Shown here in pieces: positions 8,766-56,472 of a stretch of 64,000 nucleotides of DNA. The notes beneath the pieces are model-generated. The model saw only the letters and a list, made by a program, of their open reading frames with translations. It was not told where the DNA came from and did no database searches. Numbering within the stretch: the first letter of the stretch is position 1; the number at the start of each line of letters is the position of its first letter. Source of the DNA: Sabellastarte sp. h YS-2021 (lineage: Eukaryota; Annelida; Polychaeta; Sabellida; Sabellidae). The stretch spans positions 114,127,793 through 114,191,792 of the forward strand of contig OZ024929.1 of the NCBI GenBank assembly GCA_964017235.1. Direction: 5' to 3'. The translations under genes were made by a program, and so were the position numbers.

Positions 8766-9284
8766 TGTAGTTTTCATCTGTAATCTGGATTAATTTAATT
8801 AACCATTGAAAACAATTGTCACTGAATGCCTCACTCGAGACAATGTTCTGGAGTGCAGTAATCTGTACAGACTACTGCAGCATATGTACGTGCAAATGTA
8901 CTGCAGCCACACCCTTGACTTTATGGTAATGACCTTGACCTTTAAAATCTTGTCTGGGCTATATCTCAGAAACTGTAAGGTGTAGGAAGTTGATGATGGG
9001 TGGTTAATGGTTGTATTGGTTGACAATGTAAGTGTGTAATTGTGTGATCTTTATGCGACATTTGACCCTGGGTCTGATGGAATGTTTGTTACATTTGGAT
9101 TGATACATAATTCTCTTATCACAGAGCGATGTATTGCTGCAACTGATCAGTAATATGGGTATAAAACGCATTCCATGCGTGCGTGCGTGAGTGTGCGTGT
9201 CACTGGTTGTTTTATGACCTTATTGCTTATGTCTTTTCATTTGATGCTGTTTTTTCAGACCTAGGTCCATAGCTAAGTGAGTAA

Positions 9285-11035: not shown

Positions 11036-11164
11036 TGCCCGGGAGATTATAAAACGCAGATATTTAACACATATATATGCCCTCTATAAGCATGCAGACA
11101 TTTGACCTTGAAGCTCTTCGTTCAAGGTCATCCACAGACTGCCAAAGTACCCTACTTACCTGAT

Positions 11165-29852: not shown

Positions 29853-30239
29853 TATGTCACTCTGCGGCGTGGGCGTACGTGTCCGCGTCCGCGTGAACAA
29901 CTTCTTCTCCAAAACTACAAGGCCTAGAGACATGCTGTTTTTTTTAAAAGATACCTTATCTATCGAGGATGAAAAATTGTTCAAGGCATGCAAATCTGTC
30001 TGTTCGTCTATTTGCTAGAGACATTACAAGGGGGTACCCCCACCAAAAGTGTGAAAATTTCAACTTTTTATCACAATTTTCTCAGTGACTATTGCAGGGA
30101 TTTCTCTCATATCTTGCATATATGTACTAGGCCAGAGGTAGATTCTCTTGTGTGAGTATGATACCTGGATCTGTCTTACTTTTTTTTTAATAAATTTTTT
30201 TAATAATTTTTAATGCATTAAAATTCATGAAATCATGCA

Positions 30240-31108
30240 CTAAATCACTTATAACTTCAAAAGTGTTGCATTTACAGCATTTTGTGAAAATATGTTGTTC
30301 AGCTACTTTTTTCATAGCTACAATATGGTGAGTAAGTTGGGTGTCTGTCTCAATAGCTAAGTGAGTAATAGCTACTTTTGGGCTTTTCAGTAACTTCCAT
30401 TATGAGTAAAATCACTTGTAACTTAAAAGCTATTGCATTTAGAGAATTTCGTATATATATGTTATTCAGCTACTTTTGGGACAGCTATAACATAGTGAAA
30501 TTTCAGACCTGTAGCTCATGGCATAGCTGAGTAATAGCTACTTTTAGGTTATCACTGTTGAGTAAATCGCTTATAACTTGAAAACTATTGCATTTAGAGA
30601 ATTTCGTATAAATATGTTATTCAGCTACTTTTGGGTCAGCTATAACATAGTAAAATTTCAGACCTGTAGCTCATTGCATAGCTGAGTAATAGCTACTTTT
30701 AGGTTATCACTGTTGAGTAAATCACTTATATCTTGAAAAGTGTTGCATTTAGAGCATTTTGTTAAAATATGTTATTCAGCTACTTTTTTCATAGCTACAA
30801 TATGGTGAGTAAGTTGGGTGTCTGTCTCAATAGCTAAGTGAGTAATAGCTACTTTTGGGCTTTTCAGTAACTTCCATCATGAGTAAAATCACTTGTAACT
30901 TAAAAACTATTCCATTTAGAGAATTTCGTATAAATAATTATGTTATTCAGCTACTTTTGGGCCAGCTATAACATAGTAAAATTTCAGACCTGTAGCTCAT
31001 GGCATAGCTGAGTAATAGCTACTTTTAGGTTATCACTGTTGAGTAAATCACTTATAACTTGAAAACTATTGCATTTAGAGTATTTTGTTTCAATATGTTA
31101 TTCACCTA
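30240..31108. repeat. 155-bp array in Hel-2, left of DIRS-A
   Basis: 'CATAGCTGAGTAATAGCTAC', 'GTTGAGTAAATC.CTTATAAC' and 'GGTCAGCTATAACATAGT' recur at ~154 bp. DIRS-A is inserted between 'TTCACCTATTTT' and 'GGGGTCAGCTATAACATAG', splitting one unit. Confidence 0.9.
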
Positions 31109-31121
31109 TTTTATTGCGTTA

Positions 31122-31299
31122 ATACATCCTATCCAATGGACAATTGCTTTACCGGTCGGCGCGACCGGTCCCGCCAAACGTCAGAAAAAGACGTCCTGTA
31201 TATACTACAGGCAGGACCGGTCACAGAGTGTGCATTCGCCAGGTGGCGCATCGTACTTCATTTCCTGTTTACCTATTGACATCATAGTATCTTTTTCGT
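31122..31299 (+). repeat. DIRS-A left inverted terminal repeat
   Basis: About 178 bp from CATCCTATCCAATGGAC to CTTTTTCGT. It is the reverse complement of 37220-37396 with a few mismatches. It probably carries the element promoter, but no TATA box stands out. Confidence 0.92.
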
Positions 31300-31422
31300 T
31301 TGGCGCGAAAGAGTGTGCAGAAGATTTTCTTCAGAGATACGTTTTTGAAGTTTTACAACGAACTCTTCCAAGTTTCTTGTTTTTTATTAGTATGGAGTAA
31401 TTCTACAACGTTACTGATCATT

Positions 31423-33438
31423 ATGTCGTCTCCTGGACAGAAACGAGGTTCTTGCGGGCACGTTATGGCCCTTTTCGACAACCACCAGAAATGCGCGCGT
31501 TGTCGTGACAAGGGGGTGGGAGACGACCCCTGTGTTAAAAAGCTGGATTGCCAGATCTGTAAGTCTTTTACGCCTGCGCAGATCCACCAGTTAGCAACTC
31601 CGACCTACAAGGAAAGGAAAGAACGTTCTGAGCAGAAGAGGGCTGACGGTAATGCAAGCACGACCCCCACTCTCGTGGACCCTTCAGAAGTTACACTGTT
31701 GGGACGGGTTAGCTGTGACAAGTCCTCCCCTGTTGATTCTACTCCAAAGAAGAAGAAGCGTTCTGATGGCTCCCCAAGGTCGAGTAAACGGAAGCATAGC
31801 AGCAAACCTACTTCAGACGACCTCAAGTCCCTTGAAGACAAGTGGAGTGAGAGATTTTCACGTCTAGAAGCTATGCTGATTAACCAATCCTTTGCTGTTC
31901 CGGTGAGACCGGTGACCTCTGCCTCTGTGGTGCCCAGAGAACACCCTTTCTTTGATCCGGGTGCTTCTACAAGTGTTTTGTCTTCTGAGGGCACTGGTGA
32001 CGTTGCTACGCAGTTGACGGCTACCCAACCTCCACTGGGGGTTCCCGGTACTGAGGCTGAGAGAGATGGTGTTGAGAGTGCTACCCACCCTGTTCAGGGC
32101 CCCGGTACCTCTACAGTGTTAGCCACCCAACCTTTACTGGTTCCCGGTGCAGGGACGGCCACCCAGCCTTCACAGGCTCCTGGTGCGGGTCCTGCTGGTG
32201 TTGAAACTACGCTGCATAACCAGTCGCCTCCCATTGGCCAGGAATCTGACGTTGCTAGGCAATCAGATAGTAAGGCTGAGTTGGATGGGGAACCGTCATC
32301 TCCGGCTAGTATTCACTGCCAGGGTGATTTACCGGACACAGCTACAGATCAGGACCTCTCTGAAGACGCCAATTACAGGGAAACTATTAGAGGGGTTAGA
32401 AGTTTCATGAACTGGCATCACATCCTGGATTATGACAACTTTACTGCCTCTATGGATGATAATCCTTTTGCCGGTTCTAGAGTGAAGACTACCGGTAAAG
32501 TGTCAGTTAAATTGCCGGTTGATGAATGGCTTTGCAAAAAAACTGGAGAAACTGAATGTAACTATTGCTGAAGGTTATCCAGCTAGAAATTCTGAAACCA
32601 GTGGACTGCTACGTGACCAGTTTGTAAAGACTCCACGTTCTTCCAAGTGGTACGAAATGCAAGCAGTTAAGAAGGGCGACGCGTCTACCCAGGCTGTATC
32701 CCACTGGTCTCCGGAACCGGCAAAGCTGAACAGCATGTTCTCTAGGGTCGCAAGAAGAAGTTTACCTTCTGTTCCAGCTTCCCGTACATTCAGCCAAGAT
32801 ACCCTTAGAAGGTGGGAGAAGGCATTCAGGGAACAATCCGTGATGTGTAATCACGCTGCTGGTTTATCTAGATGCCTTACTAAAGTGCAGGATTCAATGG
32901 TTACCCAGCTGAAGTCTCTCCGGTCAGATCCATCAAAGGGCAAGAGTGCTGAGAGAACCCAGCAAGCTATTGAAGAACTTGAATATCTGGTGACCTTTAA
33001 CCGGTCAATCTCCCAAGCTATGCAGCGCACCATGCAGGATCTCTCAGAGGGAGTTTTTATCAGCATGGCCAACCTCACTCTGGCACGTCGGGATAGCTAT
33101 CTGGAGTTTATCCGTGGTGGAGTTAAACCTGACACCTTAACTGCCTTCGTACATCTCCAGTCCACTTACTCTCACTGTTCCCGGACAGCTTACTGGTCAA
33201 GGCAGAAGATGAGATTTCCCGTAGTGAGGAGAGGCGTTCTATGGGTAACACACAGAGGAAACCCGGACGTTTTCATCCGTACGTTCCCTCCAGTACTAAA
33301 CCTTCACACCAGCCGGACCGGAAACCCACTACACCGGCTTGGAAACAAATCAGAGACCGGCAAACTGGTCAGAAAGGTGGGGGTAAAGCCTCAAACTTCA
33401 ACCAGAAGCCGGCCAAAGGGTTTAAGAAGCATAAATGA
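31423..33438 (+). pseudogene. DIRS-A gag-like protein, two compensating frameshifts
   Basis: The start is ATG 31423 (MSSPGQKRG); the frame is open further upstream only through non-ATG codons within the ITR border. The N-terminus has a C/H cluster (CGH...H..C..C, then GDDPC and C..C) shared with elements C and D. A long Ser/Thr/Pro-rich middle and a C-terminal Lys-rich tail follow. The frame moves by one base at the A7 run 32536-32542 and returns by a one-base loss near 33146, so ~200 residues are read out of frame. The C-terminal part has the DIRS gag phrase L.DQF..TPRSSKWY. It ends at TGA 33436-33438. Confidence 0.85.
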
Positions 33439-33444
33439 CAATTA
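33432..33444 (+). promoter_or_regulatory. Candidate stop-codon readthrough site TAAATGACAATTA (DIRS-A)
   Basis: The gag stop TGA (33436-33438) is followed by CAATTA, which fits the type-I readthrough context stop-CAR-YYA known from tobamoviruses. The frame stays open after the stop for 1,080 codons. DIRS-C has the identical 13 bases at its gag stop. Function is inferred, not shown. Confidence 0.55.
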
Positions 33445-36400
33445 TTGTGTTTCAAATGTGGTCGGATTGAAGGACTCTGTAATTGTATCCGACAAGATGG
33501 AGGGTTTGAACCCACCACCAGTGACAGATCAGAAGAACAGCAAATTGACTTTAAATGTAGACTCTCATGTTGCAAATGCTCATATTGTCACTGGGTTGCC
33601 ACAAAGGAAAGGTGTAAATCCCAATATATGTCAATTGTACACAGAAATAAAATATGTGAAAGATGTTTCTTGTGTAGGTCAATTACCTTCTCTAAAGCTT
33701 GTCACCAATGCCCAACATGCTGTTTTAGATCCCCCTGTAGGGGCGAGGTTAAACCAGTGTTGGCAGAAATGGGAAACCCTGGGTTCAAGTCCAAAAGTGG
33801 TAAACATACTGAGGGAGGGTTACACTCTCCCCTTCCGGTTCAGACCCCACTTGACAAGGTCACCGACTGTAATAAGCAACTACCACAATCCAACCAAACA
33901 GTCCTTCCTTATAGAGGCACTGTATCAGCTGATAAACAAAAATGCAGTCGAACCGGTGGACAATCCAAATTCATTGGGGTTTTACAACCGGCTATTTTTG
34001 GTACCCAAACCCAACAACCGGTGGAGACCCATCCTAGACCTGAGCACCTTGAACACCTTTTTAAACACAGGGTCGTTCAAGATGGAGACCCCAGAGACCA
34101 TAAGAACCTCCCTCCAAGTAGGGGAGTGGGTCACATCCATAGATTTCAAAGATGCATACTTCCATATACCCATTCACAGTCAGTCCAGGAAGTACATGCG
34201 TTTTCACCTCCAGGGTCGGTCCTATCAGTTCAAAGCCCTTCCCTTTGGCCTTTCCACAGCTCCCATGGAGTTCACAGTGGTGGCCAAAGAGGTCAAACTC
34301 ATGGCCCTTCAGAAGGGTATAAGGATCCACCAGTACCTAGACGACTGGCTGGTGAGAGCCTCTACCCTCCATACCTGTCTCCAGCATACTCAAACCCTGG
34401 TCACACTTTGTCAGGAACTAGGGTGGCTGGTGAACAAGGAAAAGTCAGAACTGGCACCCAAACAGGTCTTCAACTTCGTAGGTTACCAGTTCGACCTGAA
34501 AGAGGGCAAGGTCAGACCAACAGAAGAACATTGGCAGGCCTTGACAGACAAGATCAGATCAATGATGTCGGATCCGGTATGTCCGGTCCGGAAATTCATG
34601 TCCCTCATAGGTCTCCTCACAGCAACAGAAAAACAAGTCCACTTAGGGCGACTCCACATGAGACCCATACAGTGGCACTTGAAAAACAATTGGAGGGTCC
34701 CAGAGTCACTGGAAAAGGTGATCCCGGTCCCCAAGTCCCTCCACCCCCATCTAAGGTGGTGGCTGGAGGAAAGCAATGTGCTACTAGGTCAACCATTACA
34801 CCCTCTAAAACATGCTCTGCAGATCTTTACAGACGCATCAAACGAAGGATGGGGCGCTCACTTGGACGACCACACTGCAAGGGGAACTTGGTCCCTTCCA
34901 GAGAGCAAGTTTCACATAAACCACTTAGAGCTAAAAGCAGTTTTTCTAGCTCTAAAGGAGTTTCGAACCCTGGTCTGCAACAAGACTGTGTTGATAGCTA
35001 CAGACAACACAACAGTGGTTGCCTATATCAACAAAGAAGGGGGGATGAAGTCGGGGTCACTGTGTGCCCTACTGTGGAGAATCCTGTCCTGGTGCACCAG
35101 ACAGCAGGTAACCCTCAGGGCACGTCACATCCCCGGCCGGCTGAACGTGATAGCAGACAAGCTATCCAGACTTGGCCAGACCATTCAAACAGAGTGGTCA
35201 CTTCATCCAGCAGTATTCCAAGCTGTATGCGCAAGGTGGCACCAGCCACAAGTGGACCTGTTTGCCACCAGGTTCAACAACAAACTGCCCCAGTTTGTGT
35301 CACCGGTGCCAGACCCCCAGGCTTGGGCAGTGGATGCACTCAGTCTCTCCTGGGAGGACCTGGACCCATACGCCTTCCCACCGGCAGCCATCTTGGGCAA
35401 AGTGGTGGAGAAGCTCCAGGACTACCCCTGCAACAGAATAATCCTGATTGCCCCAGGGTGGCCCAACATGCCCTGGTTTTGGGACCTGGTAGCAATGTCA
35501 AGCCAGATCCCACTGTGTCTGCCCAACCTACCCAACCTAGTGTCTCAGCCATTCAACCAGGTCCTTCACAGGATCCTGTCAAATCTGAACCTACATGCCT
35601 GGCTCCTAGAGCCTCAGCAATCAAGGAGCAAGGCTTCTCTGAGGCAGTGTCAGCACGAATTGAGGCTCCTCAAAGAAGATCAACCAGATCTGTCTATGAG
35701 GCAAAGTGGACCATTTTTACAAAGTGGTGCCTCAGTAATCAGGTGGACTTCAGGGCACCACCTCTGAAAGCCATTGCTGACTTCCTCCTGCACTTGTTTC
35801 AGGACAAGAAGTTACAACCAGGCACTATTGATGGCTACAGATCCGCCATTGCTGACAAACTGGGCAATTCCACCATTAATGTCAGCAAAGATGAGAATCT
35901 CACTCGTCTCCTGGATAGTTTCCATAGAGACAGACCTAAAGGCAGGAGGGGCATCCCCTCCTGGAACCTTTCACTGGTTTTACATCAGCTCACAAAGGCT
36001 CCTTTTGAACCCCTGAAAGAGTCCTCCTTGAAACATTTGACTTTCAAGACTGTTTTCTTGCTGGCTTTGGGTTCAGGTAAACGCAGGAGTGAGATCCATG
36101 CTTGGTTACATAAGAACATCAGACACCAGTCAGACTGGTCTAAGGTGTCCTTGTACCCCTCACCCAGCTTCCTATCCAAGAACCAGCTGGCTAAGGAAGG
36201 TCCAGATAGTGTGGCGCCAGTGGTCATCCCAGCCCTGGCACCATCTCTGGATAGGTCACTCAAGGGTGACAGGTCCCTATGTCCAGTTAGAGCCCTGCGC
36301 TACTACTTGGACAGGACTGCAGACCTCAGGCAGAATAAAGAGTTAGCCTTTGTCTCCTTCAAGAAGGGTTTTGATAAAGACATCTCACCTGCCACCATCT

Positions 36401-36681
36401 CCTCATGGATCAAACAGACTGTGGTTCTGTGCTATGAGCTCTCTGACCAGGAGGCCCTCACCTTACATCAGGTTAAAGCCCATGATGTTAGGGCCTTTGC
36501 TGCTTCTAAGGCCTTCCAATCAGGGATCTCCTTAGATCAGATCTTGTCAGCCTGCCACTGGAAATCTCACAACACCTTCACCCAATTCTATTTGAAGGAT
36601 GTTGCCTGGGCTGACTCAGAGCTTTTCCACCTGGGACCTGTAGTGGCTGCCCAGCAGGTGCACCACCAGGCCCAGAAGTGA
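33439..36681 (+). CDS. DIRS-A Cys-rich/tyrosine recombinase frame
   Basis: Open from the codon after the gag TGA, in the gag frame, to TGA 36679-36681. The first ~105 residues are Cys-rich: C-x2-C-x6-C-x-C, then C-x3-CC-x-C-x2-C, C-x2-C-x2-C and C-x2-C-x2-CC, suggesting zinc binding. The next ~600 codons overlap the RT frame and read as Pro/Ser/Gln/Arg-rich sequence. From ~35590 a tyrosine recombinase follows, with Arg in GKRRSEIHAW (36079-36108), HDVR (36481-36492), CHW (36553-36561) and Tyr at 36589-36591. It would integrate the circular DNA. There is no good ATG at the 5' end, so expression by readthrough is inferred. Confidence 0.75.
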   Translation, partial: QLLCFKCGRIEGLCNCIRQDGGFEPTTSDRSEEQQIDFKCRLSCCKCSYCHWVATKERCKSQYMSIVHRNKICERCFLCRSITFSKACHQCPTCCFRSPCRGEVKPVLAEMGNPGFKSKSGKHTEGGLHSPLPVQTPLDKVTDCNKQLPQSNQTVLPYRGTVSADKQKCSRTGGQSKFIGVLQPAIFGTQTQQPVETHPRPEHLEHLFKHRVVQDGDPRDHKNLPPSRGVGHIHRFQRCILPYTHSQSVQEVHAFSPPGSVLSVQSPSLWPFHSSHGVHSGGQRGQTHGPSEGYKDPPVPRRLAGESLYPPYLSPAYSNPGHTLSGTRVAGEQGKVRTGTQTGLQLRRLPVRPERGQGQTNRRTLAGLDRQDQINDVGSGMSGPEIHVPHRSPHSNRKTSPLRATPHETHTVALEKQLEGPRVTGKGDPGPQVPPPPSKVVAGGKQCATRSTITPSKTCSADLYRRIKRRMGRSLGRPHCKGNLVPSREQVSHKPLRAKSSFSSSKGVSNPGLQQDCVDSYRQHNSGCLYQQRRGDEVGVTVCPTVENPVLVHQTAGNPQGTSHPRPAERDSRQAIQTWPDHSNRVVTSSSSIPSCMRKVAPATSGPVCHQVQQQTAPVCVTGARPPGLGSGCTQSLLGGPGPIRLPTGSHLGQSGGEAPGLPLQQNNPDCPRVAQHALVLGPGSNVKPDPTVSAQPTQPSVSAIQPGPSQDPVKSEPTCLAPRASAIKEQGFSEAVSARIEAPQRRSTRSVYEAKWTIFTKWCLSNQVDFRAPPLKAIADFLLHLFQDKKLQPGTIDGYRSAIADKLGNSTINVSKDENLTRLLDSFHRDRPKGRRGIPSWNLSLVLHQLTKAPFEPLKESSLKHLTFKTVFLLALGSGKRRSEIHAWLHKNIRHQSDWSKVSLYPSPSFLSKNQLAKEGPDSVAPVVIPALAPSLDRSLKGDRSLCPVRALRYYLDRTADLRQNKELAFVSFKKGFDKDISPATISSWIKQTVVLCYELSDQEALTLHQVKAHDVRAFAASKAFQSGISLDQILSACHWKSHNTFTQFYLKDVAWADSELFHLGPVVAAQQVHHQAQK
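33440..35767 (+). CDS. DIRS-A reverse transcriptase / RNase H / MT-like frame
   Basis: It runs one base ahead of the gag frame and ends at TGA 35765-35767. The RT has LVPKPNNRWRPILDLSTLN, LPFGLSTAPMEFT and the catalytic YLDD (34334-34345). RNase H has Asp at 34832, Glu at 34928 and Asp at 35003, plus HIPGRLNVIADKLSR. Downstream, DLFATRFN...YAFPP and APGWPNMPWFWDL correspond to the methyltransferase-like domain of DIRS elements. All key residues are intact. The start is unclear: homology begins ~33745, and the frame is open upstream into gag, so frameshifting or internal initiation are both possible. Confidence 0.85.
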   Translation, partial: NYCVSNVVGLKDSVIVSDKMEGLNPPPVTDQKNSKLTLNVDSHVANAHIVTGLPQRKGVNPNICQLYTEIKYVKDVSCVGQLPSLKLVTNAQHAVLDPPVGARLNQCWQKWETLGSSPKVVNILREGYTLPFRFRPHLTRSPTVISNYHNPTKQSFLIEALYQLINKNAVEPVDNPNSLGFYNRLFLVPKPNNRWRPILDLSTLNTFLNTGSFKMETPETIRTSLQVGEWVTSIDFKDAYFHIPIHSQSRKYMRFHLQGRSYQFKALPFGLSTAPMEFTVVAKEVKLMALQKGIRIHQYLDDWLVRASTLHTCLQHTQTLVTLCQELGWLVNKEKSELAPKQVFNFVGYQFDLKEGKVRPTEEHWQALTDKIRSMMSDPVCPVRKFMSLIGLLTATEKQVHLGRLHMRPIQWHLKNNWRVPESLEKVIPVPKSLHPHLRWWLEESNVLLGQPLHPLKHALQIFTDASNEGWGAHLDDHTARGTWSLPESKFHINHLELKAVFLALKEFRTLVCNKTVLIATDNTTVVAYINKEGGMKSGSLCALLWRILSWCTRQQVTLRARHIPGRLNVIADKLSRLGQTIQTEWSLHPAVFQAVCARWHQPQVDLFATRFNNKLPQFVSPVPDPQAWAVDALSLSWEDLDPYAFPPAAILGKVVEKLQDYPCNRIILIAPGWPNMPWFWDLVAMSSQIPLCLPNLPNLVSQPFNQVLHRILSNLNLHAWLLEPQQSRSKASLRQCQHELRLLKEDQPDLSMRQSGPFLQSGASVIRWTSGHHL

Positions 36682-36885
36682 GGGGATGTTGTATATATGT
36701 AAATATGTACATATTGTAAATATGTTAGATATGTACATAATGTAAATATGTTGAGTGTACATATATTTTCAAAAAAACAAAAACAAAAAAAACTGTGACT
36801 TGCTTCCTTTGGGAAGTTTATTTCTTCTGGGACTGAACTCAGCCCCTCTCTCTCTCTCTATCTTTCCCTTCTCAGACCATCTCTG

Positions 36886-36907
36886 GAAGGAAAGAAAAAG
36901 GGGGGGG
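36886..36907 (+). promoter_or_regulatory. DIRS-A purine tract (GGAAGGAAAGAAAAAGGGGGGG)
   Basis: An all-purine tract ~205 bp after the recombinase stop and ~155 bp before the internal complementary region. Tracts of the same A-then-G form occupy the same place in DIRS-C and D, after 'CTCAGA(C/G)CA'. It could prime plus-strand synthesis; role inferred. Confidence 0.5.
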
Positions 36908-37063
36908 CAACGTCGGTAGGCTCCCGGTTAACCGGTGAGTTAGTGGCCGACCCTGACCTTTCAGGTTTCTCTGACCCTAGGTCAAATGGGCCTGTTCAAA
37001 TTTGTTGTTTGAGTTCACGTAAGTCCCTAGCTGCTTACCCGCCTACCAAGCGGTAGTTATTCA

Positions 37064-37159
37064 GCAATTATCCATTGGATAGGATGTATTAACGCAATAA
37101 AATTGCAAATTTAATAAGTAAATTAAATTTTTATAAGTTAATACCCTATCCAATGGACA
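37064..37159. repeat. DIRS-A internal complementary region
   Basis: The left half is the reverse complement of the left terminus (CCATTGGATAGGATGTATTA). The right half is the reverse complement of the unique right terminus (TAAGTTAATACCCTATCC on this strand). They meet at GCAATAAAATTGC (37094-37105), the circle junction; AAAA at 37099-37102 matches the TTTT found at both borders. Confidence 0.9.
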
Positions 37160-37219
37160 GGCAAGGCCCACCCAACCGGCCCCGCTATCAGCTTACTAGG
37201 GGTCTTACTAGGATTAGAC

Positions 37220-37396
37220 ACGAAAAAGATGCTATGACGTCAATAGGTAAACAGGAAATGAAGTACGATGCGCCACCTGGTGAATGCACACTCTGTGACC
37301 GGTCCTGCCGGTAGTATATACAGGACGTCTTTTTCTGACGTTTGGCGGGACCAGTCGCGCCGACCGGTAAAGTAATTGTCCATTGGATAGGGTATT
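37220..37396 (-). repeat. DIRS-A right inverted terminal repeat
   Basis: Reverse complement of 31122-31299, followed by ~37 bases of right-end-only sequence to 37433 that is mirrored in the internal complementary region. Confidence 0.92.
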
Positions 37397-37437
37397 AACT
37401 TATAAAAATTTAATTTACTTATTAAATTTGCAATTTT

Positions 37438-38155
37438 GGGGTCAGCTATAACATAGTGAAGTTTCAGACCTGTGGCTCATTTCATAGCTGAGTAATAGCT
37501 ACTTTGAAGTTCTCACTGTTGAGTAAATCAGTTATAATTGGAAAACTATTGCATTTACAGAAATTTGTGCAAATATGTTATTCAGCTACTTTTGGGTCAG
37601 CTATAACATAGTGAAATTATAGACCTATAGCTCATGGCACAACTGAGCAATAGCTATTCTCAGGTACTGACTGTTGAGTAAATCAGCTATAACTTGAAAA
37701 ATATTGCATTTGGAGTATTTTGTTAAAATATATTGTTCACCTACTTTTGGGTCAGCTATAACATAGTGAAATTACAGACCTATAGCTCATGGCATAGCGG
37801 AGCAATAGCTATTTTCAGGTTCTCACTATTGAGTAAATCAGTTGTAGCTTGAAAACTATTGCATTTACAGTAGTTTGCTTAAATATGTTGTTCACCTACT
37901 TTTGGGTTAGCTATAACATAGTAAAATTTCAGACATGTAGCTCATTGCATAGCTGAGTAATAGTTCCTTTGAGGTTCTCACTGTTGAGTAAATCAGTTGT
38001 AACTTGAAAACTATTACATTTAGAGTAATTTGTTAAATATGTTATTCACAGAATTTTTGGTCAGCTATAACATAGTGAAATTGCAGACCTCTATGTCATG
38101 GCATAGCTGAGCAATAGCTACTTTCAGGTTCTCACTGTTGAGTAAATCATTGTAT
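37438..38155. repeat. 155-bp array in Hel-2, right of DIRS-A
   Basis: It resumes in register at 'GGGTCAGCTATAACATAGTG'. About 4.5 units have 'CATAGCTGAG(T/C)AATAGCT' spaced ~155 bp. A block with a different origin follows from 38156 to 38339. Confidence 0.9.
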
Positions 38156-44671: not shown

Positions 44672-47031
44672 CTATAAATCAGGATGGAAGGACAACATGT
44701 CCTCGTTCACACTGATCCACCAAGGGTGGGGGACCCATTGCAAGAGGTTTTCCCAATCCTGGGTATTTCCTTTCCATCTGGATAGCAAATCTGCTACCTT
44801 ATTTTCTGAACCTTTGATATGTGTGAAAGTGACATCAATGTCATAGGTGGCAGCACAGTACCAGATATTCCTAGCACAAGCCGCCAGGAAGGGGTCTCGC
44901 GTCTTCCCGGATCTGAGTACAGTGACCACAGCATAATTATCACATCTAACCAAGATCTTTTTGGTAGACCAGAGGCGCCAAAATAGCCTCATGGCCAACA
45001 AAATGTTAACCATCTCCAGTTGAACTATCCCACAATTTGCATAACCATGTGCCAAAGGGAGATGATACACAAATCTCCCAACACAACCACCTAGGCCCGT
45101 GAGACAGGCATCCAGTTCAATGATATGGTCAACGCTTCTGTGATCATAGTAGTTGACGCCATTGTAGGATGGCAAGAACTTTGCAAACCATTGAAGGTCG
45201 CGTCGAAATTCTGACGTCAAAGATATGAAATTGCTGCCATGGGCAGCCCTGAGAAGTTCTAACATTCGATTCAGGAAAATGCGAGCAGGCTTGACGCATT
45301 TGTGAATATATAACAGCAATCCCAGCAGGGATTGAAGTTGACGCCTAGTGCATGAACGCTTTTCAAGCCATTGGTGAACTGTTTCACTAATTTGAGTCAA
45401 TTTTTCAGGAGGTATTGAAATGGTACCTGCGTCAGTGTCTATAAGTACCCCCAAACAAGTAACACGAGTACTAGGGGAAACCAGCTTCTTCTGGCTGACG
45501 GATAGACCTAGACGTTCCATCAGATCTAGCAAAAAGTGATATGACGCATGCGCGACGCTCGGGACGCCCACGCCAACGTAATCATCAATGTAATCGATGA
45601 CAGGAAAGCCTTCCTGACGCATCATGTAACGCACTGCGTCGCTTATACGTTGAAAAATCTGGCTTCCGTGACGCGTCCCGAACGGAAGACACGTATCAAC
45701 GTACGCCCCGTACCATTCAAGGCCTAAGAGGTCATAGTCACCAGGATCCACCTTGACGTGGCGGAACGCGCGGCTGACGTCCACTTTATAAAGCAACGCC
45801 CCCCTGCCAATACGTTTGGCTTCCTCAGTGATATGATCAATGGAGGGGAAGTTCAAATCAAACTGGCTTCCCAGGTAGGTGTTTTTGTCAATGCCTGCAT
45901 TAACAGATTCGCCTATTGGCCAACTCAAATCGACGATTACACGCCGCCTGTCAGAATTTGGCTTACTTCTGGTCATGAAAGGTGATTGATGACCCCCAGG
46001 AATGGGATTTTTGGAGAAAGGACCCAATATTGCCTGGTGTTCAGTTTCTTCCTTAATGTAGGCTTCCACATCATTTGGGTACTGAATAGCAGAACTGTGA
46101 TTTTTGTTGTCACATATTAAAGGGCAATTTCTATTAAAATCCAGAGGGAAGCCAAATTCCAAAAGCTGAAGCAACTGCTGGTCCCAATAGTCGGTTAGTA
46201 GTGACTTCCAGGTATCTACATTTAATTGAGAGGGAACAGGGAGCCTAGCTTCCATGTAGTTGGGTTTTCCAGTGGCTTTTACGAGAGCATGGGCAGTAAA
46301 AGGAGAAAAGCCATCCAGACAATGCACTACATTAGTGTTGGGCATAACCTGGTCATCAATAGGTATGTAGCCAAAAGGGAAGTCAGACTGGGCTTGCCAC
46401 TTTCTGAAAAGGGCTGACTGATGGTCAATGGGGGCATTATTCTTCTTAGTACTTTCATTTAGTATAGAACTAATGAACTTGTCCTCAATACCACTGTGAT
46501 TCTCATCATAATCAGATTTGTTTGTGATTTTAGGGGGAGCTTGGTTAGCCGGCGGTGAAGAAGCCATGTTCTCAGTGACGCGAAACGACGCCATATGTAC
46601 TTGACTCTCACCCCCCCCTGTGGCAAGCCTAGAGTTGCCACTATCATGTCACAATTTGGGATACTACTTGTATTTGTAAGGTCAAAAGCAGTATTTTGAG
46701 TATTTGTACAATCATTTTCAGGATTACATTTTTCTTCTGGTGGTATGACCACCTCAGGTATAGCAGAATGACCCCTTGTGAAAACCATTGATTTGACCAC
46801 TCTTTTGTCAATAAGTTTTTTATGCTTTTTGCCTTTATTTGCCAAAATAGCTTCAATGTCGGGTGGTTTTACGTTTGAGTTATAGAACAACCTTGTTTTG
46901 TAACCAGAGGCACTGGGGATCATTCTGTCAGAGCCACCAACTGCTACGGGACTACCAACGACATGTTTACACTTGACACTTTGAACTTTACTGATATTTA
47001 CACTAACTGCTTCAACACTTTGGTCCAACAA
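44672..47031 (-). pseudogene. Element B RT/RNase H, frameshifted at a G8 run
   Basis: The main open part (44672-46594) has a Ngaro-type RT: LSWPIGESVN, KVDVSRAFRHV, LPFGTRHGSQIFQR and YIDD (45581-45592). The RNase H has ELDACLTGLGG, LEMVNILLAM, RCDNYAVV and HIKGSENKVADLLSRW. An N-terminal ~140-codon extension lies in another frame (46620-47031). The frames meet at a run of eight C on the + strand (46610-46617), so a one-base indel there split the ORF. All catalytic residues seen are intact. Confidence 0.82.
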
Positions 47032-47051
47032 ATTTCTCTGGCTGACCAGCC

Positions 47052-47560
47052 CTAGTGACTGGCAGCCCCTGCATCGTTTTTTGACGCATTTTTCTTGTGG
47101 GCACAGTCCTTTTCAGCTTGACCTAATTGCCTACCTGTTGACAAGCAGTATGCACAAATGTGCCTGTGTAGCCTACCATTTGATTCATGAACTTTCTGAA
47201 AACCACAGGTGCCAGACTGAAAACTTTTGCAAAACCAGGGTTTTTTACCGGTTTCATTTGATTTTACCCAATTTTGTTTTCCCGGAACCACATGTTTTTG
47301 TGCATAGGCTCTGCGTATACGGTCAATACGGTCCTGATCACCCCAGTCAACCTTCCCCCTCTCCATCTCGCAGAGTAAGACGGCATGAGCCGCCTTAGCC
47401 CCCTGCCAACTAAAATCCGAAGCATCCTCCATGAGGTCTCCCATGTAGGACACCATAGCATCTCTACGACTGACCGAAGGTTCATCTAAGATATTCTTGC
47501 AGAAACCATTGACCCATTGGGTCAGGGACAATTGATCATAATTGATACGCTGTCTACTCG

Positions 47561-47601
<41 letters not shown>

Positions 47602-48162
47602 GATCGTTTCATGTGGCCAGGCTACTTTCTTTTTAACTGTGACATCTATATTTCCCCCCCTTTTTGACTTGATTTTCCCACATGAATCCATACCTGGACA
47701 GTGTGAACTATGTGTTAATTCCCTAATTCGCCTGTCAACACGTTTCTGCAGTTGGGGAGATCTCAACACATCAAGACTAGGAGTGTCACTATCAGAGGAC
47801 GAATCAGTATATACACATGACTTTCTTTTACTTTTTACTTTTCTAACAGAGGACATAACACTGGAAGTACTTAACTTTGATGTACTCAACTTCTGAGGCG
47901 AGGCTGGAAATACTGTGGTCATCCGATCCTCCACCTTGTCCAACCGCTTGGTCACCTTCTCCAATTGCTGTAAGATCTGTAACTGGACTCGCTGTCCGTC
48001 AAAGGCTATCCCACTAGCCTCACTGGATACGGCAGCATCTCTGAACAGTTCATCAGAATTCACATTGTCTTCCTCCACTGTCTCCACTGCAATTTTACAG
48101 TTCCTCCCCACAGGTGGTATGTGTTTAGCATCACATTTTTTACAATGCTTTTTGTTGGGCAT
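47052..48162 (-). pseudogene. Element B gag-like protein, split at a 39-base homopolymer
   Basis: It starts MPNKKHCKKCDAKHIPPVGRNC (Cys motif), has an acidic/coiled middle, then reaches a run of 39 C on the + strand (47561-47599) that reads as poly-Gly. After the run the frame differs by one base. The C-terminal half has a C/H cluster (CKSFQSGTCGFQKVHE, RHICAYC, DCAHKK) as in Ngaro gag proteins. It ends at TAG 47052-47054. The length of the run decides whether the frame is open. Confidence 0.75.
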
Positions 48163-49790: not shown

Positions 49791-49903
49791 TTGGCGCGAT
49801 ATTTAAAGTTGTGGATTTTTATCTGTGAACTTTTTAGTTTCATTTTTGTGTTATATCTGTTTAATTTGTGTCGGAATTGTTGCCATTAGTTGACTGTTCT
49901 ATC

Positions 49904-50891
49904 ATGGCATCTCCAGGACAGAAAAAGGGTGCGTGTGGCCATATTATGGCTTCATTTGACAAACATAGTAGGTGTGTGCGTTGTCGCGAGAAAGGACAGG
50001 GTGATGACCCTTGTGTTCAAAATCTGCAGTGTGACTTTTGCAGTGTCCTTACCCCGGAGCAAGTGCTCAAGTTAAGTACTCCTACCTATAAACTCAGAAA
50101 GGAAAAGGCTAAAGCAAAGGAGGTGTTAGTCGATCCGTCTTCTGTGGTAGTACTTGATACCCAGCCTGAACAAGAACCTGCTGTTTCTGTTTCTTCTGCT
50201 CCGGATTTGTCCCTTCCTGTGCCTCAGTTTAAGAAAGATCTTCAAGAACTGGACGAAAAGTGGGCCACTCGTATGGCCAGGCTTGAGGCACTTATTACTT
50301 TAGGACATCGCTCCTCACCTTCTGTGCAACAAAATCCAACATTTTCTCCGGTCAAAGTACCGGTCTCTCATGCTGCTCCAGCAGGTGCTCTTTCCCAGAC
50401 ACCCTTTTTTGTCTCTACTTCGGCTTCTTCCGGCCCAGCCGGCCCGGCTGTTGGCCCGGATGAGCCTAGAGATCAGGATTTTTCCTTTGCTGACAGACAA
50501 TCTCCACTTCAAAACCTCTACCCGGAAGCAGAACCTATGTTTAAACACCCTGCTCCGGTGGCTACTGTTTCGTCAGCTGCTATGTCTGCTTCCTCTCAAT
50601 CTGCATTTCAACAACCTTCTTCCGGCTCCGGGCCGGTCACCTTCCGCGATGTCAATCCTCAGGAAACATTTGAAGAGGGTGAGTTATCTGACGCAGAGGA
50701 ATCCCCAGACTTGGAAACCTCAGACCCGGACCGGGTCCTCAGTGAAGATCAAAAAAACAACTTCTCAAGCCGGGAAGGAACTACCAGCTTGGAAAGCGTT
50801 TGGTTCCCGCAATAGAGGCCGGGGCAGAGGCCGGGGTGGTCAGCCCGGACGTGGTACCAAGATGGCTCATGAGAAGACACAGTATAAATGA
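49904..50891 (+). pseudogene. DIRS-C gag with a large internal deletion
   Basis: ATG 49904 gives MASPGQKKGACGH, homologous to DIRS-A gag: the C/H cluster, GQGDDPC and LTPEQVLKLSTPTYK. The middle is Ser/Pro/Ala-rich. Near 50756 it jumps, relative to A, from the SEDQ region to the tail, losing ~0.9 kb including the SKWY domain, and changes frame. The Arg/Gly-rich tail (RNRGRGRGRGG) ends at TGA 50889-50891. Confidence 0.82.
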
Positions 50892-50897
50892 CAATTA
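50885..50897 (+). promoter_or_regulatory. Candidate readthrough site TAAATGACAATTA (DIRS-C)
   Basis: Same 13 bases at the gag stop as in DIRS-A, although flanking gag and downstream bases differ. The gag frame stays open after the TGA for 228 codons, to 51575, and through the recombinase if the A-run insertion at 51504-51509 is discounted. Confidence 0.55.
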
Positions 50898-53800
50898 CTG
50901 CAAGTCAAGTCCGGTGCCGGTGGTCCGGCCAGTCAGTTCTGTGAAAAGTGTCGTAACAAGAAACTCTTTTGTATCTGTTCCAACAAATGTTTCTTATCAT
51001 GTTGTATGTCGTGTACCTACTGTAACAAGGTGGCAGTCACAAAAGAAAGACGTAAGGCCAAAATCAAAGATCAAAAGTCAAATAAAGTGTGTGAAAAGTG
51101 CTTCTTTTGTCGGTCACTTTGTTTCTGCTCCAAATGTTCCAAATGTCCCCAATGTTGCAAGTGTCCAACCAGTGGGGGGACGTCTTCAGAGTTTTTGGGA
51201 AATATGGGCTCACAAGGGTGCAAACCCAAAAGTAGTGTCCATATTAAAGGAGGGTTATGTTCTTCCCTTCAAAGTAAGACCTCCCTTAGTAAGGGATCCC
51301 CTGATAGTAAGTGGCTATGCAAACCCCATCAGAGACTCCCACTTGCAAGCAGCTGTACAAGCTCTGATCGAGAAAAAGGCAGTAGAGAGGGTCAGGGTTC
51401 AAACCTCACTAGCCTTTTTCAACAGACTGTTCATTGTCCCAAAGCCGAACCACAAGTGGCGGCCAATCTTGGATCTCAGTACTCTAAATCAGTTTTTATG
51501 CGTAAAAAACATTCAAAATGGAGACTCCAGAGACAATCCGGACCTCTCTACAACAAGAGGAGTGGGTGTCATCGCTAGACTTCAGCGACGCCTACTTCCA
51601 CATTCCAATTCACTACACATCCCGAAAATTCCTCAGGTTCCACTTTCAGAACCAGTCGTACCAGTTTCGGGCACTTCCCTTTGGCCTGTCAACAGCTCCC
51701 ATGGAGTTCACTGGTGTGGTCAAAGAGGTCAAGTTAATGGCTCAGTCACAGGGTATAAGAATCCACCAGTACCTAGACGACTGGTTGATTCGAGCCCCTA
51801 CCAAAGAATCTTGCCACCAGGGAACCCAGTCCCTCCTAGCCCTTTGCCAGGAGTTGGGCTGGATGGTAAACATGCAAAAGTCAGAACTGGAACCCCAACA
51901 AGTCTTCGACTTCGTAGGCTACCAGTACGACCTACTCAACGGAGTAGTCAGGCCTACTCAAAACCGTTGGGAAGCCCTTCAACAAAAAATAACAGTGCTT
52001 TTACAGAACAGATCTTGCCGAGTGAGAACTTTCATGTCTCTTATAGGTCTTCTCACTGCGACAGAAAAACAGGTGACCCTAGGCAGACTGCACATGAGAC
52101 CTATTCAGTGGCACCTCAAGAAACACTGGAGAGTCCCAGAATCTCTGGAAAAGGAGATCCCAATTCCGAGGTCTCTCCATCAGTACCTGCAGTGGTGGAC
52201 CCAAGAGGAAAATGTCCTAAAGGGTCAGCCCTTACACCCCCTTCGACACGCAGTTCAAATCTTTACAGACGCCTCAAAAGAAGGCTGGGGTGCTCACTTA
52301 GGCGACTTCACAGCAAGCGGTACTTGGTCAGTGCCCGAAAGCAAGTTGCACATAAACTTCTTAGAACTAAAAGCCGTGTTGTTAGCACTAAAAAGATTCC
52401 AACATTTAGTGCAAGGAAAGGTCGTCCTGATTGCCACAGACAACACTACGGTTGTAGCATACATCAACAAGGAAGGAGGTATGAGGTCAGGCTCACTCTG
52501 TGCCCTTCTTTGGCGGCTCCTATGTTGGTGCAGCCTCAATCAAATAGTACTGAAGGCCAGACACATTCCAGGCCGTCTGAATGTAATTGCAGACAAATTG
52601 TCTCGCCAAAGGCAGGTCATTCAGACGGAATGGTCCCTCCATCAAGAGACCTTCGACCTTCTTTGTCAAACCTGGCATTATCCCCGAGTGGACATGTTTG
52701 CAACAAGGTACAACTGCAAGCTAGTTCAATTTGTGTCCCCAATTCCAGACCCAAGGGCCTGGTCAGTGGATGCTCTGACATTGTCCTGGGAGGACCTGGA
52801 CATGTACCTCTTCCCCCCAGTGTCTCTGATGGGGAAGGTGGTCAGCAAGCTGTCAGATCACTGGTATCGCAGAGCAATCCTGATTGCCCCGGGATGGCCC
52901 AACATGCCTTGGTTTTGGGACCTAGTGGAGCTATCTGCGAGGGTTCCTCTTTGTCTTCCACACCACCCAGATCTAGTGACCCAACCTTTCAACAAGGCAC
53001 GTCACAGGGATCTGACAAACCTAAATCTCCATGCCTGGCTCCTAGAGCCCAGACAATCAAGGAGCAGGGGTTCTCTAGCCCAGTGGCGTCAAGAATTGAG
53101 GCGCCTCAAAGACGTTCAACCAGAACAGTCTACGAAGCGAAGTGGGCCGTTTTTGTCAGATGGTGCGAAACAAGTCAGGTGGACTTCAGGAACCCATCTA
53201 TAAAACAAATAGCAGATTTCCTCCTGCACCTTTTCCAGGAGAAAAATCTCCAGCCCAGCACTATTGAAGGTTACAGGTCAGCCATTGCAGACAAACTGGG
53301 AAATACCTCGATTAATGTCGGCAAGGATGACAATTTGACTAGACTGTTAGACAGTTTTCACAGGGATAGACCCAAAGGACGCAGGGGGGTTCCTGCTTGG
53401 AACCTCTCCCTAGTTTTACACCAGCTTACAAAAGCACCTTTTGAACCCCTCAGAAAGGCTTCTCTGAAACACCTTACTTTCAAAACTGTTTTTCTCCTAG
53501 CCCTGGCTTCAGGAAAACGCAGAAGTGAGATACACGCTTGGTTAAACAAAAATATCAGACACCAAGCTGATTGGTCCAAAGTTTCCCTCTACCCATCACC
53601 AAGTTTCTTGGCGAAAAATCACTTGGCAAAAGAGGGACCAGAGTGCGTGGCCCCTGTGGTCATCCCGGCCTTAGCCCCCACTCTGGATAAGTCTTTAAAG
53701 GAAGACAGATCCCTTTGCCCCGTTCGGGCTCTTCGATACTACCTGGACAAAACACAGGATCTAAGAATGAGAAAGGAGTTAGTTTTTGTTTCATTCAAAC

Positions 53801-54105
53801 GAGGGTTTGACAGGGACATTTCTCCTGCCACTATCTCGTCCTGGATCAAACAAACAGTAGTGTTGTGTTATGATCTCTCTGACCAGGAGTCCTTGACCTT
53901 ACATCAGGTCAAGGCCCATGACGTTAGGGCCTTTGCGGCCTCCAAAGCTTTTCAAGGTGGCATATCTCTGGACCAGATTCTAGCAGCATACCACTGGAAG
54001 TCCCACAACACCTTTACACAGTTTTACCTTAAGGATGTTGCCTGGGCAGATAAGGAGCTTTTTCACTTGGGTCCTGTGGTGGCGGCCCAGCAGATCCACC
54101 ACTAG
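50892..54105 (+). pseudogene. DIRS-C Cys-rich/tyrosine recombinase frame, one-base insertion
   Basis: After the gag TGA the same frame has CEKCRNKKLFCIC (C-x2-C-x6-C-x-C, the spacing of A), then C-x3-CC, CEKCFFCRS and CSKCPQCC. At the A6 run 51504-51509 one extra base moves the frame. From there the shifted frame is open to TAG 54103-54105 and encodes the recombinase: GKRRSEIHAW, KAHDVRAFAASKAF, YHWKSHN (His-Trp) and QFYLKD (Tyr). The recombinase part is intact, with CHW of A replaced by YHW. Confidence 0.75.
50893..53203 (+). pseudogene. DIRS-C RT/RNase H/MT-like, one frameshift
   Basis: The N-terminal part (to ~51505) and the rest (to TGA 53201-53203) are in frames one base apart, separated by the A6 run 51504-51509, one A more than DIRS-A alignment predicts. 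The rest has FKMETPETIR-like residues, LPFGLSTAPMEF, YLDD (51770-51781), RNase H FTDAS, ATDNTTVVAYINKEGG and HIPGRLNVIADKLSR, then DMFATRYN and APGWPNMPWFWDL. Catalytic residues are all present. Confidence 0.85.
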
Positions 54106-54826: not shown

Positions 54827-56472
54827 CATTGCGTTGGAAGCGTTTCAGTCACTCTGAGAGAAGTTGGCCACAAAAAAGAAAGTCGAGGTAGAATCCTCGC
54901 TTCCTGCTTCCAAACCTGGCTCGTCCAGTAACAATGCTGCCCATCTGGATTTACACCCTCCGAGATCTAGTACTAACATTCAGACCGAGGCAATGGATGT
55001 GGACTACGGTCCAGCACTCCCTCCTCGTCTAGTACTCAACCAAGATACCTCGGATCAGTACGTTGCCCCCTCTGAGGGTCATCCCGAAGAGGTCTCGTAC
55101 TCTCACAAAAAGCAAAGCCATAGGCAGCCAGTTGACCCGAGCTCTGCCTCGGACCAACTACATGAGGAGTCCAACCAACCTCGGATCCCTTCTTCTAGAC
55201 CTAAAAAACACTCTGACAAGAGCAAACACAAATCAAGGTCTAGATATGTGTCTTTTTCTTCAGAGGAAGATCAGTCCCCTGTAGCCAGACACAGGTCTTC
55301 TAAGCCCTCTAGGGCTCAGCCCTCAGGAGCAGCTTCTGATCAAGACCTCCCACAACATGATCCAGACCCCCCTTATTATAGGGAAGTAGCTCTGTCTGAC
55401 ATACCCTCACAATACTCTGAAGAAGTAGACACCTTCAGGCGTATTCTCTCTCTCCCTGATCCCAGGGAATCTATGCCTAGGTCTTCAACTTCAGTATTGG
55501 GTCTGGATGATGAAAAAGGCCGTCAAGAACTCAGACCTAGAGGTCCTTCCTCTATTCTACCCCTTAGCTCAGTTATCAAGGACGCCTTTGATAAATTTCA
55601 ACATGACTTTAAGGCTGCCAATTTATCTGAGGGCAAATATGTCAAGCCTCCTCCTTCCACTTCTAAGTGGTACAAGGTGGGACAGCCCACATTTCAGGAT
55701 AAAATTCAGGAGTTGAATACAGACTTTGCCAAGATCTGTATTACTCCTAGACCTCCTGCGGCCCCAGTAGCCAAAGTTCCCCTGCCAGTTCTCAAGGAGC
55801 TGGAACACCAGGCTAGACAAAATATCTCAACCCTCAACTTCACCGCTGCATTTGCCAAAACTTCTTCTTCTTGCAATGCTTCCTTGGAAAAATGCCAACA
55901 TAGCATTAAGTCAACTGTCAAGAAGATAAAATCTCAGATTCAGAAAGCTGCCAATCCTGAGAAAGCAGCAAAGCGCGGATATGAGGAAGTCGCTGAGTAC
56001 ATGGATTTTTGGAACAAGACAGTCCTTGTTCAACATAGGGCCCTCACCTGTCTCAGCAAATCTCTAGCCCATATTCTCCAGAGGGAGTTATATTCTATGG
56101 CTAATACCGGCTTGCTTAGGCGCGAAGCTGAGATGACTCTATTACATCCACAGTTAGGGGAAATGAGACGTCAAGAAGTTAGGAACTCGTCCTCTTGGGG
56201 CTCTTCCTTGTTCGAGTCTCAACTCGTGAAGGAAGGTGAGGACTTCCTTCTCAAAAAAGGCACCTCAAAAGATTCTCAGGGTTTCGCACCCTACCAGAAT
56301 AAGCCCTTTCGTGGTCCCCACAAGAAAAGAGGCTCCCTATGGGGGCAATACCTCTCAAAGCAGTAACCAGTCCTTTCCCTCGGGAAGAGGAAAACCCAAC
56401 TTCAGAGGCTCCAGGGGTCGTTTTCGACCCCACAATAGGGGAAGGGGGCGTGGAAACCCCTCTTCCCAATGA
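54827..56472 (+). pseudogene. DIRS-D gag, 3' part
   Basis: After the DIRS-C border the gag frame has a TGA at 54855, then is open from 54858 to TAA 56364. It is rich in Ser/Pro/Lys with an RPKKHSDKSKHKSRSR basic stretch, the SKWY motif (STSKWYKVGQ) and a helical C-terminal half. The RG-rich tail (GSRGRFRPHNRGRGRG) lies in another frame, reached near 56335, and ends at TGA 56470-56472. That stop is followed by CTCCTC, not CAATTA. Confidence 0.8.

What the first reader, a model, noticed from the sequence alone, without database searches (positions are those of the whole stretch)
33432..33760. gag TGA-CAATTA followed by a conserved Cys-rich extension in DIRS-A
Seen: the gag frame stops at TGA (33436) followed by CAATTA, then stays open with Cys clusters C-x2-C-x6-C-x-C, C-x3-CC, C-x2-C-x2-C and C-x2-C-x2-CC. 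DIRS-C has the same 13 bases at its gag stop and the same Cys spacing, while the RT-frame reading of this ~300-bp stretch is poorly conserved between the two. So the gag-frame reading looks like the coding one. Known: stop-CAR-YYA drives type-I readthrough in tobamoviruses. Inference: these elements make a gag-Cys-recombinase fusion by readthrough.
Basis: partly seen in the sequence, partly recalled or inferred. Interest (0 to 1): 0.86.

Follow-up and report, generated by a model that had tools for sequence, protein, structure and literature searches.

The report
Probable leaky gag stop in DIRS
In these retrotransposons the structural (gag) gene ends at a stop codon set in a known leaky context, and a conserved cysteine-rich stretch and the recombinase follow in the same frame, so ribosomes that pass the stop would make a gag-recombinase fusion, which could answer how these elements make their recombinase.

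Summary
At 33433-33444 the gag frame reads AAA-TGA-CAA-TTA, then stays open for 1,080 codons through a Cys-rich stretch, across RT/RNase H (in the +1 frame), into the tyrosine recombinase. Of 22 junctions read from 13 clusters of related elements in this genome, 22 have AAA before the stop, 21 have TGA, 20 have TGA-CARYYA. In 13 sequences from 11 clusters the Cys core is under purifying selection in the gag frame (pN/pS 0.48) but not in the RT (0.95) or third frame (1.05). Over RT the gag/recombinase frame has no stop where synonymous shuffling gives about 17, never under 7. No start codon after the stop is conserved. UGA-CARYYA is published to give about 15% readthrough in mammalian cells. 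Best explanation: programmed readthrough makes gag-Cys-recombinase. Not shown: any protein or transcript. Limits: the 37 residues after the stop are unconserved; a Cys-less family has the same one-TGA layout but CTCCTC after it. The RT frame is also kept open through the Cys region, so the same stop may feed RT by a +1 shift.

The parts
31108..37437 (+). DIRS1-like element A as bounded by its repeats
   Evidence: inverted repeats: 31128-31299/37220-37391 (97%), 31108-31148/37063-37103, 37099-37159/37377-37437
31128..31299 (+). left inverted terminal repeat
37220..37391 (+). right inverted terminal repeat
37063..37159 (+). internal complementary region (two pieces complementary to the left and right ends, overlapping by 5 bases)
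31423..33435 (+). gag of element A from its first ATG; frame changes near 32.53 and 33.14 kb in this copy
33433..33444 (+). junction AAA-TGA-CAA-TTA, the proposed readthrough signal
33445..33549 (+). rest of the linker after the stop, gag frame; holds the first Cys cluster (A and C types only)
33550..33744 (+). Cys core, gag frame, under purifying selection
33745..35520 (+). gag/recombinase frame held open over RT/RNase H; lack of amino-acid constraint was tested only for the first part after the core
   Evidence: openness (33773-35500); pN/pS
35521..36681 (+). tyrosine recombinase domain and its stop, same frame as the end of gag
33440..35767 (+). RT/RNase H reading frame, +1 relative to gag; amino-acid constraint seen only after the Cys core
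50886..50897 (+). same junction in element C (AAA-TGA-CAA-TTA)
50982..51179 (+). Cys core of element C, gag frame
52963..54105 (+). tyrosine recombinase of element C (this copy has a frame change near 51.48 kb)
56470..56472 (+). gag stop TGA (followed by CTCCTC) of a third DIRS element without Cys core; recombinase-overlap frame follows in the same frame

Best explanation
The gag stop is a programmed type-I-like readthrough site (UGA-CARYYA). Most ribosomes stop and make gag; a fraction insert an amino acid at UGA and go on in the same frame through a conserved Cys-rich, probably zinc-binding, domain, then through a spacer of about 590 residues encoded on the other frame of RT/RNase H, into the tyrosine recombinase. 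The product is a gag-Cys-recombinase fusion, which would bring the recombinase into the gag particle in a low fixed ratio, as gag-pol readthrough does in gammaretroviruses (that comparison is general knowledge). Shown: layout, conservation of the signal, selection on the Cys core in the gag frame, selection to keep the frame open to the recombinase, absence of a conserved start codon. Inferred: that readthrough happens, zinc binding, and packaging.
For: Layout: one TGA splits an otherwise open frame; six of the 115 listed matches across the junction have 1,787 to 1,854 codons with that one stop (hand count). Signal: in 15 representatives every position from -3 to +9 is 14 or 15 of 15 identical except +8, which is T in 6 and C in 9; 20 of 22 junctions TGA-CARYYA, 13 clusters; among near-identical copies 48 of 49 placed A-type and 30 of 30 C-type loci have TGA. 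Selection: gag frame 0.48 against 0.95 and 1.05, robust to alignment frame. Openness over RT: 0 stops against means of 17.7, 17.4 and 17.3 in 2,000 shuffles each (A window copy, C copies L063 and L070), minimum 7. No conserved ATG: six of the 21 sequences listed have no Met in the 131 or more codons read after the stop, a seventh (L089) has its first at codon 147. UGA-CARYYA gives about 15% readthrough in mammalian cells in the OPRL1 context, all six bases mattering (PMC4132726, passages); the review lists pomovirus coat extension UAG-CAA-UYA (PMC3542737, passages). No excess RNA structure in A or C: z -0.10 and -0.18.
Against: No protein, ribosome or transcript data. The roughly 37 residues right after the stop show no amino-acid constraint (pN/pS 0.83, 0.91, 0.90 in the three frames). 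Two of 15 representatives (L092, L100) have a frame-changing indel between stop and core, and L103 has a further stop in the linker. Some families do have a Met before the core or at its edge: codon 3 (L102, L103), 21 (L090), 30 (L091), 34 (L095, L096, L104), and L100 at codon 3. Parts of the gag end further upstream (-24 to -17) are also strongly conserved, and the junction bases are read in the RT frame too, so part of the conservation may have other causes. The Cys-less element has TGA-CTCCTC, not CARYYA. No family with the stop naturally absent was found: four apparent cases, checked, all had TGA.
Confidence: 0.74

Rival explanations
1. The stop is mainly a +1 frameshift site that feeds RT (AAA-UGA-C re-pairing to AAU-GAC), and the recombinase is made some other way.
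For: RT lies +1 of gag in A, C and the Cys-less element. The RT frame has no stop through the Cys region in 13 of 13 sequences, where synonymous shuffling gives 13.7 in sum, never under 6 (three of the 13, L095, L099 and L101, expect almost none and add nothing), so RT seems to be translated through it from at or before the gag end. AAA precedes the stop in 22 of 22 junctions. AAA before a stop favours a +1 shift, by proposed re-pairing to AAU, in Euplotes (PMC10235951, passages), and UGA_C weakens termination in favour of both readthrough and +1 shift (PMC9841425, passages).
Against: Leaves the gag-frame selection on the Cys core and its open frame to the recombinase unexplained; CARYYA is known as a 0-frame signal; no strong fold after the stop (pseudoknots not modelled). 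The Cys-less element has CAA before the stop.
Confidence: 0.1
2. Termination and reinitiation, or a non-AUG start, just after the stop makes a separate Cys-recombinase protein.
For: ATG at codon 3 after the stop in L100, L102, L103; TTG, CTG or ATT there in most of the others; other Mets in the linker of L090, L091 and L095 types. Five deposited gene models begin at that place (P0001-P0005).
Against: CTA (L097, L098) and CTT (L095, L106, L107) at that place are poor starts; the residue is simply aliphatic. There would be no need to keep CARYYA or the gag register.
Confidence: 0.07
3. A splice joins an upstream exon to the Cys-recombinase frame and removes the stop.
For: Deposited gene models cross frames, apparently by supposed introns.
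Against: No conserved AG near the junction in 22 sequences (by eye); a GT at +14/+15 is common but lies after the stop and could not remove it. Register with gag is kept although linker length varies, in 13 of 15.
Confidence: 0.05
4. UGA is decoded as selenocysteine.
For: 21 of 22 junctions have TGA and none another stop.
Against: No SECIS match in 31000-37500 at E up to 1; CARYYA is not needed for Sec.
Confidence: 0.02

Closest known systems
DIRS1-like retrotransposons with long ORF overlap (Dictyostelium DIRS-1; survey PMC3266345)
   Same: gag, RT/RNase H, tyrosine recombinase, inverted terminal repeats with internal complementary region; recombinase ORF overlapping pol, catalytic part in the 3' non-overlapping end (passages)
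   Different: no Cys extension and no recoding at the gag stop mentioned in the passages read
Type I viral readthrough signal (tobamovirus UAG-CARYYA; pomovirus coat extension UAG-CAA-UYA; PMC3542737, passages)
   Same: same hexamer CAA-UYA directly after the stop, A before the stop, no structure needed
   Different: UGA instead of UAG; in a retrotransposon; would give gag-recombinase, not replicase or coat extension
Gammaretrovirus gag-pol readthrough (listed in PMC3542737)
   Same: leaky gag stop to make a less abundant enzyme fusion
   Different: there UAG with a pseudoknot and the product is pol; here UGA-CARYYA, no strong fold seen, product is recombinase with RT in another frame
Candida Tca2 gag-UGA-pol (PMC2194720, abstract)
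   Same: single UGA between in-frame retroelement ORFs
   Different: LTR element with potential pseudoknot; its junction failed to drive readthrough in yeast, a warning for the present case
Zinc-finger gags of Pat1-like elements and VIPER (PMC4157794, PMC6681497, passages)
   Same: Cys motifs linked to gag
   Different: those lie within gag, in VIPER as CX2CX4HX4C; here 12 invariant and 2 nearly invariant Cys, no conserved His, after the gag stop, no Pfam family above cut-off

Membership tests
DIRS1-like retrotransposon | inverted terminal repeats plus internal complementary region | tested here: met
DIRS1-like retrotransposon | RT and RNase H | tested here: met
   RVT_1 79.2 bits (cut-off 29.6), RT_RNaseH 28.4 bits (cut-off 24.8)
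DIRS1-like retrotransposon | tyrosine recombinase | tested here: inconclusive
   Phage_integrase 16.4 bits, E 0.0082, below its cut-off of 27.1; position and conservation between three elements of the window agree
DIRS1-like retrotransposon | methyltransferase domain | not tested
   no dedicated profile run; none above cut-off
Type I stop-codon readthrough | CARYYA directly after the stop, conserved | tested here: met
   21 of 22 junctions CARYYA, 20 of 22 with TGA as well
Type I stop-codon readthrough | coding selection continuing in frame after the stop | tested here: met
   met for the Cys core; not met for the first 37 residues
Type I stop-codon readthrough | measured readthrough | not testable with these tools
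   UGA-CARYYA measured in another gene context only (PMC4132726, passages)
Retroviral (type III) readthrough | 3' pseudoknot or stem-loop | tested here: inconclusive
   110-base folds of A and C no better than shuffles, z -0.10 and -0.18; pseudoknots not modelled
Selenoprotein | SECIS element | tested here: not met
   Rfam scan of 31000-37500 at E up to 1: three matches, none SECIS

The most novel reading that the evidence does not exclude
One leaky stop with two exits: at AAA-UGA-CAA-UYA ribosomes either stop (gag), read through in frame (gag-Cys-recombinase) or slip +1 (gag-RT), so a single 12-base signal sets the ratio of all three DIRS products, and RT and the recombinase chain share roughly 670 codons of doubly read DNA after the Cys core.
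Probability: 0.28. Interest if true: 0.87.

Novelty: new variant of a known kind. Interest (0 to 1): 0.74.

Why it matters
How DIRS elements make their overlapping recombinase and RT is not explained in the papers and passages seen here. A short, conserved, experimentally known readthrough signal at the gag stop turns this into a direct bench test, would put type-I readthrough into the DIRS order of retrotransposons, and shows a Cys domain between gag and recombinase that no Pfam family covers.

Tried and rejected
Stopless families: one search listed Cys-core matches with frames of up to 1,799 codons and no stop inside, which looked like natural gag-Cys-recombinase fusions; four were fetched (L105-L108) and all four have TGA. 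The idea was dropped.

ATG restart: suggested by gene models starting MCFKC; the DNA of A copies has TTG there, so it was demoted, not excluded.

Structure: two AlphaFold runs gave mean pLDDT 49.5 and 51.1, unusable; no fold search was made. No PDB sequence match at E up to 1. Pfam: no family for the first of 15 core sequences, two of 15 weakly like DUF7410, best E 0.14. RNA folds unremarkable.

Openness of the RT frame upstream of the gag stop is uninformative: expected stops are 0 from the gag protein itself, so the point where RT translation enters its frame could not be placed.

Papers: 8 searches. No title or abstract listed reports readthrough in a DIRS element, but four lists were cut (30 of 56, 20 of 76, 15 of 96, 10 of 16), and Poulter and Goodwin 2005, cited in what I read, was not looked up; absence from print is not shown.
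Full report
OBSERVATION. The gag frame of element A ends at TGA 33436-33438 in the string AAA-TGA-CAA-TTA; the same frame is then open from 33439 to 36681, 1,080 codons, ending with the recombinase. RT/RNase H is in the +1 frame to 35767. The element is DIRS1-like by its repeats: terminal inverted repeats 31128-31299 and 37220-37391, 97%, and internal complementary pieces at 37063-37159. Element C, at about 49.9-54.1 kb, has the same junction at 50886-50897 and the same Cys pattern. The window copies themselves are damaged: A's gag changes frame twice; C lacks a middle part of gag (compare L062) and changes frame near 51.48 kb.

THE GENOME AROUND IT. A search with A's Cys stretch scored 150 of 15,160 candidates; 32 of the 150 have open frames of 1,000 codons or more, six of these counted through a stop inside the match (hand count). 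With C's stretch, 150 of 14,895 were scored, 81 of them with exactly 1,070 open codons (hand count). A more distant query gave many further families.

THE JUNCTION IS CONSERVED. In the 22 junctions read for comparison between families (two in the window, L089-L108; none of these dropped), AAA precedes the stop in 22 of 22, TGA is present in 21 of 22 (L101 has TCA), CARYYA in 21 of 22 (L093 has AAA-TCA), both together in 20 of 22. With L041 these sequences form 13 clusters at 90% identity, 10 at 80%, 5 at 70%. In 15 representatives positions -3 to +9 have pair identity 0.87 to 1.00 except +8 (T or C), while positions -9 to -4 and +16 to +31 lie between 0.22 and 0.74. Other well conserved places exist: -24 to -17 apart from -19, which codes for gag residues, and +11, +13, +15 (0.87-1.00). 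Position +8 varies only between the two pyrimidines that the published consensus allows. The junctions were located by a pattern that already asks for much of this context, but each of the 20 fetched loci matched it. Of A-type loci 48 of 49 placed have TGA (L057 CGA; L029 was not placed by that script), C-type 30 of 30; these are near-identical copies and add little. In one search, 108 of 115 listed matches that cross the stop contain a TGA (hand count; the table does not give its position, and the list is cut).

THE CYS CORE IS A PROTEIN IN THE GAG FRAME. In 15 aligned cores 12 Cys columns are invariant and two more nearly so, with no conserved His. In 13 sequences from 11 of the 13 clusters (L100 left out for a frame-changing indel, L103 for a stop in the linker), pN/pS over the core is 0.48 in the gag frame (0.35-0.65), 0.95 in the RT frame (0.74-1.29), 1.05 in the third (0.81-1.36). 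Building the alignment in any of the three frames leaves 0.46-0.53 for the gag frame and 0.88-0.92 for RT. Directly after the core the picture flips: RT 0.29, gag frame 1.44. The first 37 residues after the stop show no constraint in any frame: 0.83, 0.91, 0.90 (13 of 15 representatives, L092 and L100 dropped). That is a result against a functional protein directly at the stop, though it fits a free linker. Extra stops after the TGA occur in single copies: L045 after 15 codons, L053 after 64, L103 after 13.

THE FRAME IS HELD OPEN TO THE RECOMBINASE. Shuffling synonymous RT codons 2,000 times gives 17.7 stops on average (minimum 7) in the gag/recombinase frame over 33773-35500; observed 0. Two C copies: 17.4 and 17.3 expected, minimum 7, observed 0. 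The third frame shows no such depletion (A: 47 observed, 40.0 expected). So core and recombinase are most likely made as one chain. Its start is not a conserved ATG: of 21 sequences listed, six have no Met in the 131 or more codons read, L089 has its first at 147, A at 64, C at 39; but L102 and L103 have one at 3, L090 at 21, L091 at 30, L095, L096 and L104 at 34.

RT IS ALSO READ HERE. In 13 of 13 sequences the RT frame has no stop from the gag stop to the end of the core; shuffling gag-frame codons gives 13.7 in sum, minimum 6. Three of the 13 (L095, L099, L101) expect almost none, and the families are related, so these are not 13 independent tests. RT thus seems to be translated through the Cys stretch although its residues there are free. 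With no ATG shared by A and C in that frame, a +1 shift near the gag end is likely, and the junction is the natural place; this is inference.

A CYS-LESS FAMILY SHARES THE LAYOUT. The third element of the window has no Cys core; its gag stop is TGA at 56470-56472 followed by CTCCTC. In the genome, 150 of 150 scored matches (of 26,980 candidates) across that junction contain a TGA, with frames up to 1,802 codons (these are 94-100% alike, so one family). The layout gag - UGA-C - recombinase, RT at +1, is therefore wider than the CARYYA motif.

MECHANISM. UGA followed by CARYYA gave about 15% readthrough in the OPRL1 context in mammalian cells; UGA and UAG were alike and UAA much weaker; all six bases appeared to matter (PMC4132726, passages). 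CARYYA acts on UGA too, and pomovirus coat extensions use UAG-CAA-UYA (PMC3542737, passages). No unusually stable fold follows the stop in A or C, as for type I signals. I judge readthrough the most likely route, 0.74. The Tca2 case, where a gag-UGA-pol junction did not read through in yeast (PMC2194720, abstract), shows why a reporter test is needed.

KNOWN AND NEW. Overlap of recombinase and pol ORFs in DIRS is known (PMC3266345, PMC5633606, PMC6681497, passages). In the passages read and in the listings of eight searches no recoding at the gag stop of a DIRS element appeared. No Pfam family reaches its cut-off for the Cys stretch or core and no PDB sequence matches it. Hence: a new variant of a known kind, both for DIRS expression and for type I readthrough.

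Noticed in passing
30183-31112 and 37435-38154, also 9266-11038 and 62851-63672: Element A sits inside a tandem repeat: the same repeat (copies offset by roughly 155 bases) flanks it on both sides and recurs elsewhere in the window.
   Followed up: no
genome C1:165911273, 165918358, 165925443; C3:113961013, 113967799, 113974591: DIRS copies in threes at nearly constant spacing (7,085 bases; about 6,790 bases), as if in tandem arrays.
   Followed up: no
G000:C8:2617043-2617417: One C-type copy is reported with an open frame of 1,751 codons and no stop inside the match; sequence not read, and the same column proved misleading elsewhere.
   Followed up: no
49901-50891: Gag of element C in the window lacks a middle part that sister copies such as L062 have.
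   Followed up: partly
44672-47621, minus strand: A different RT-bearing element, only about 23% like the RT of A.
   Followed up: no
P0001, P0003, P0040 and others: Deposited gene models pass between the Cys frame, RT frame and recombinase frame, apparently by supposed introns; likely annotation artefacts of overlapping frames.
   Followed up: partly
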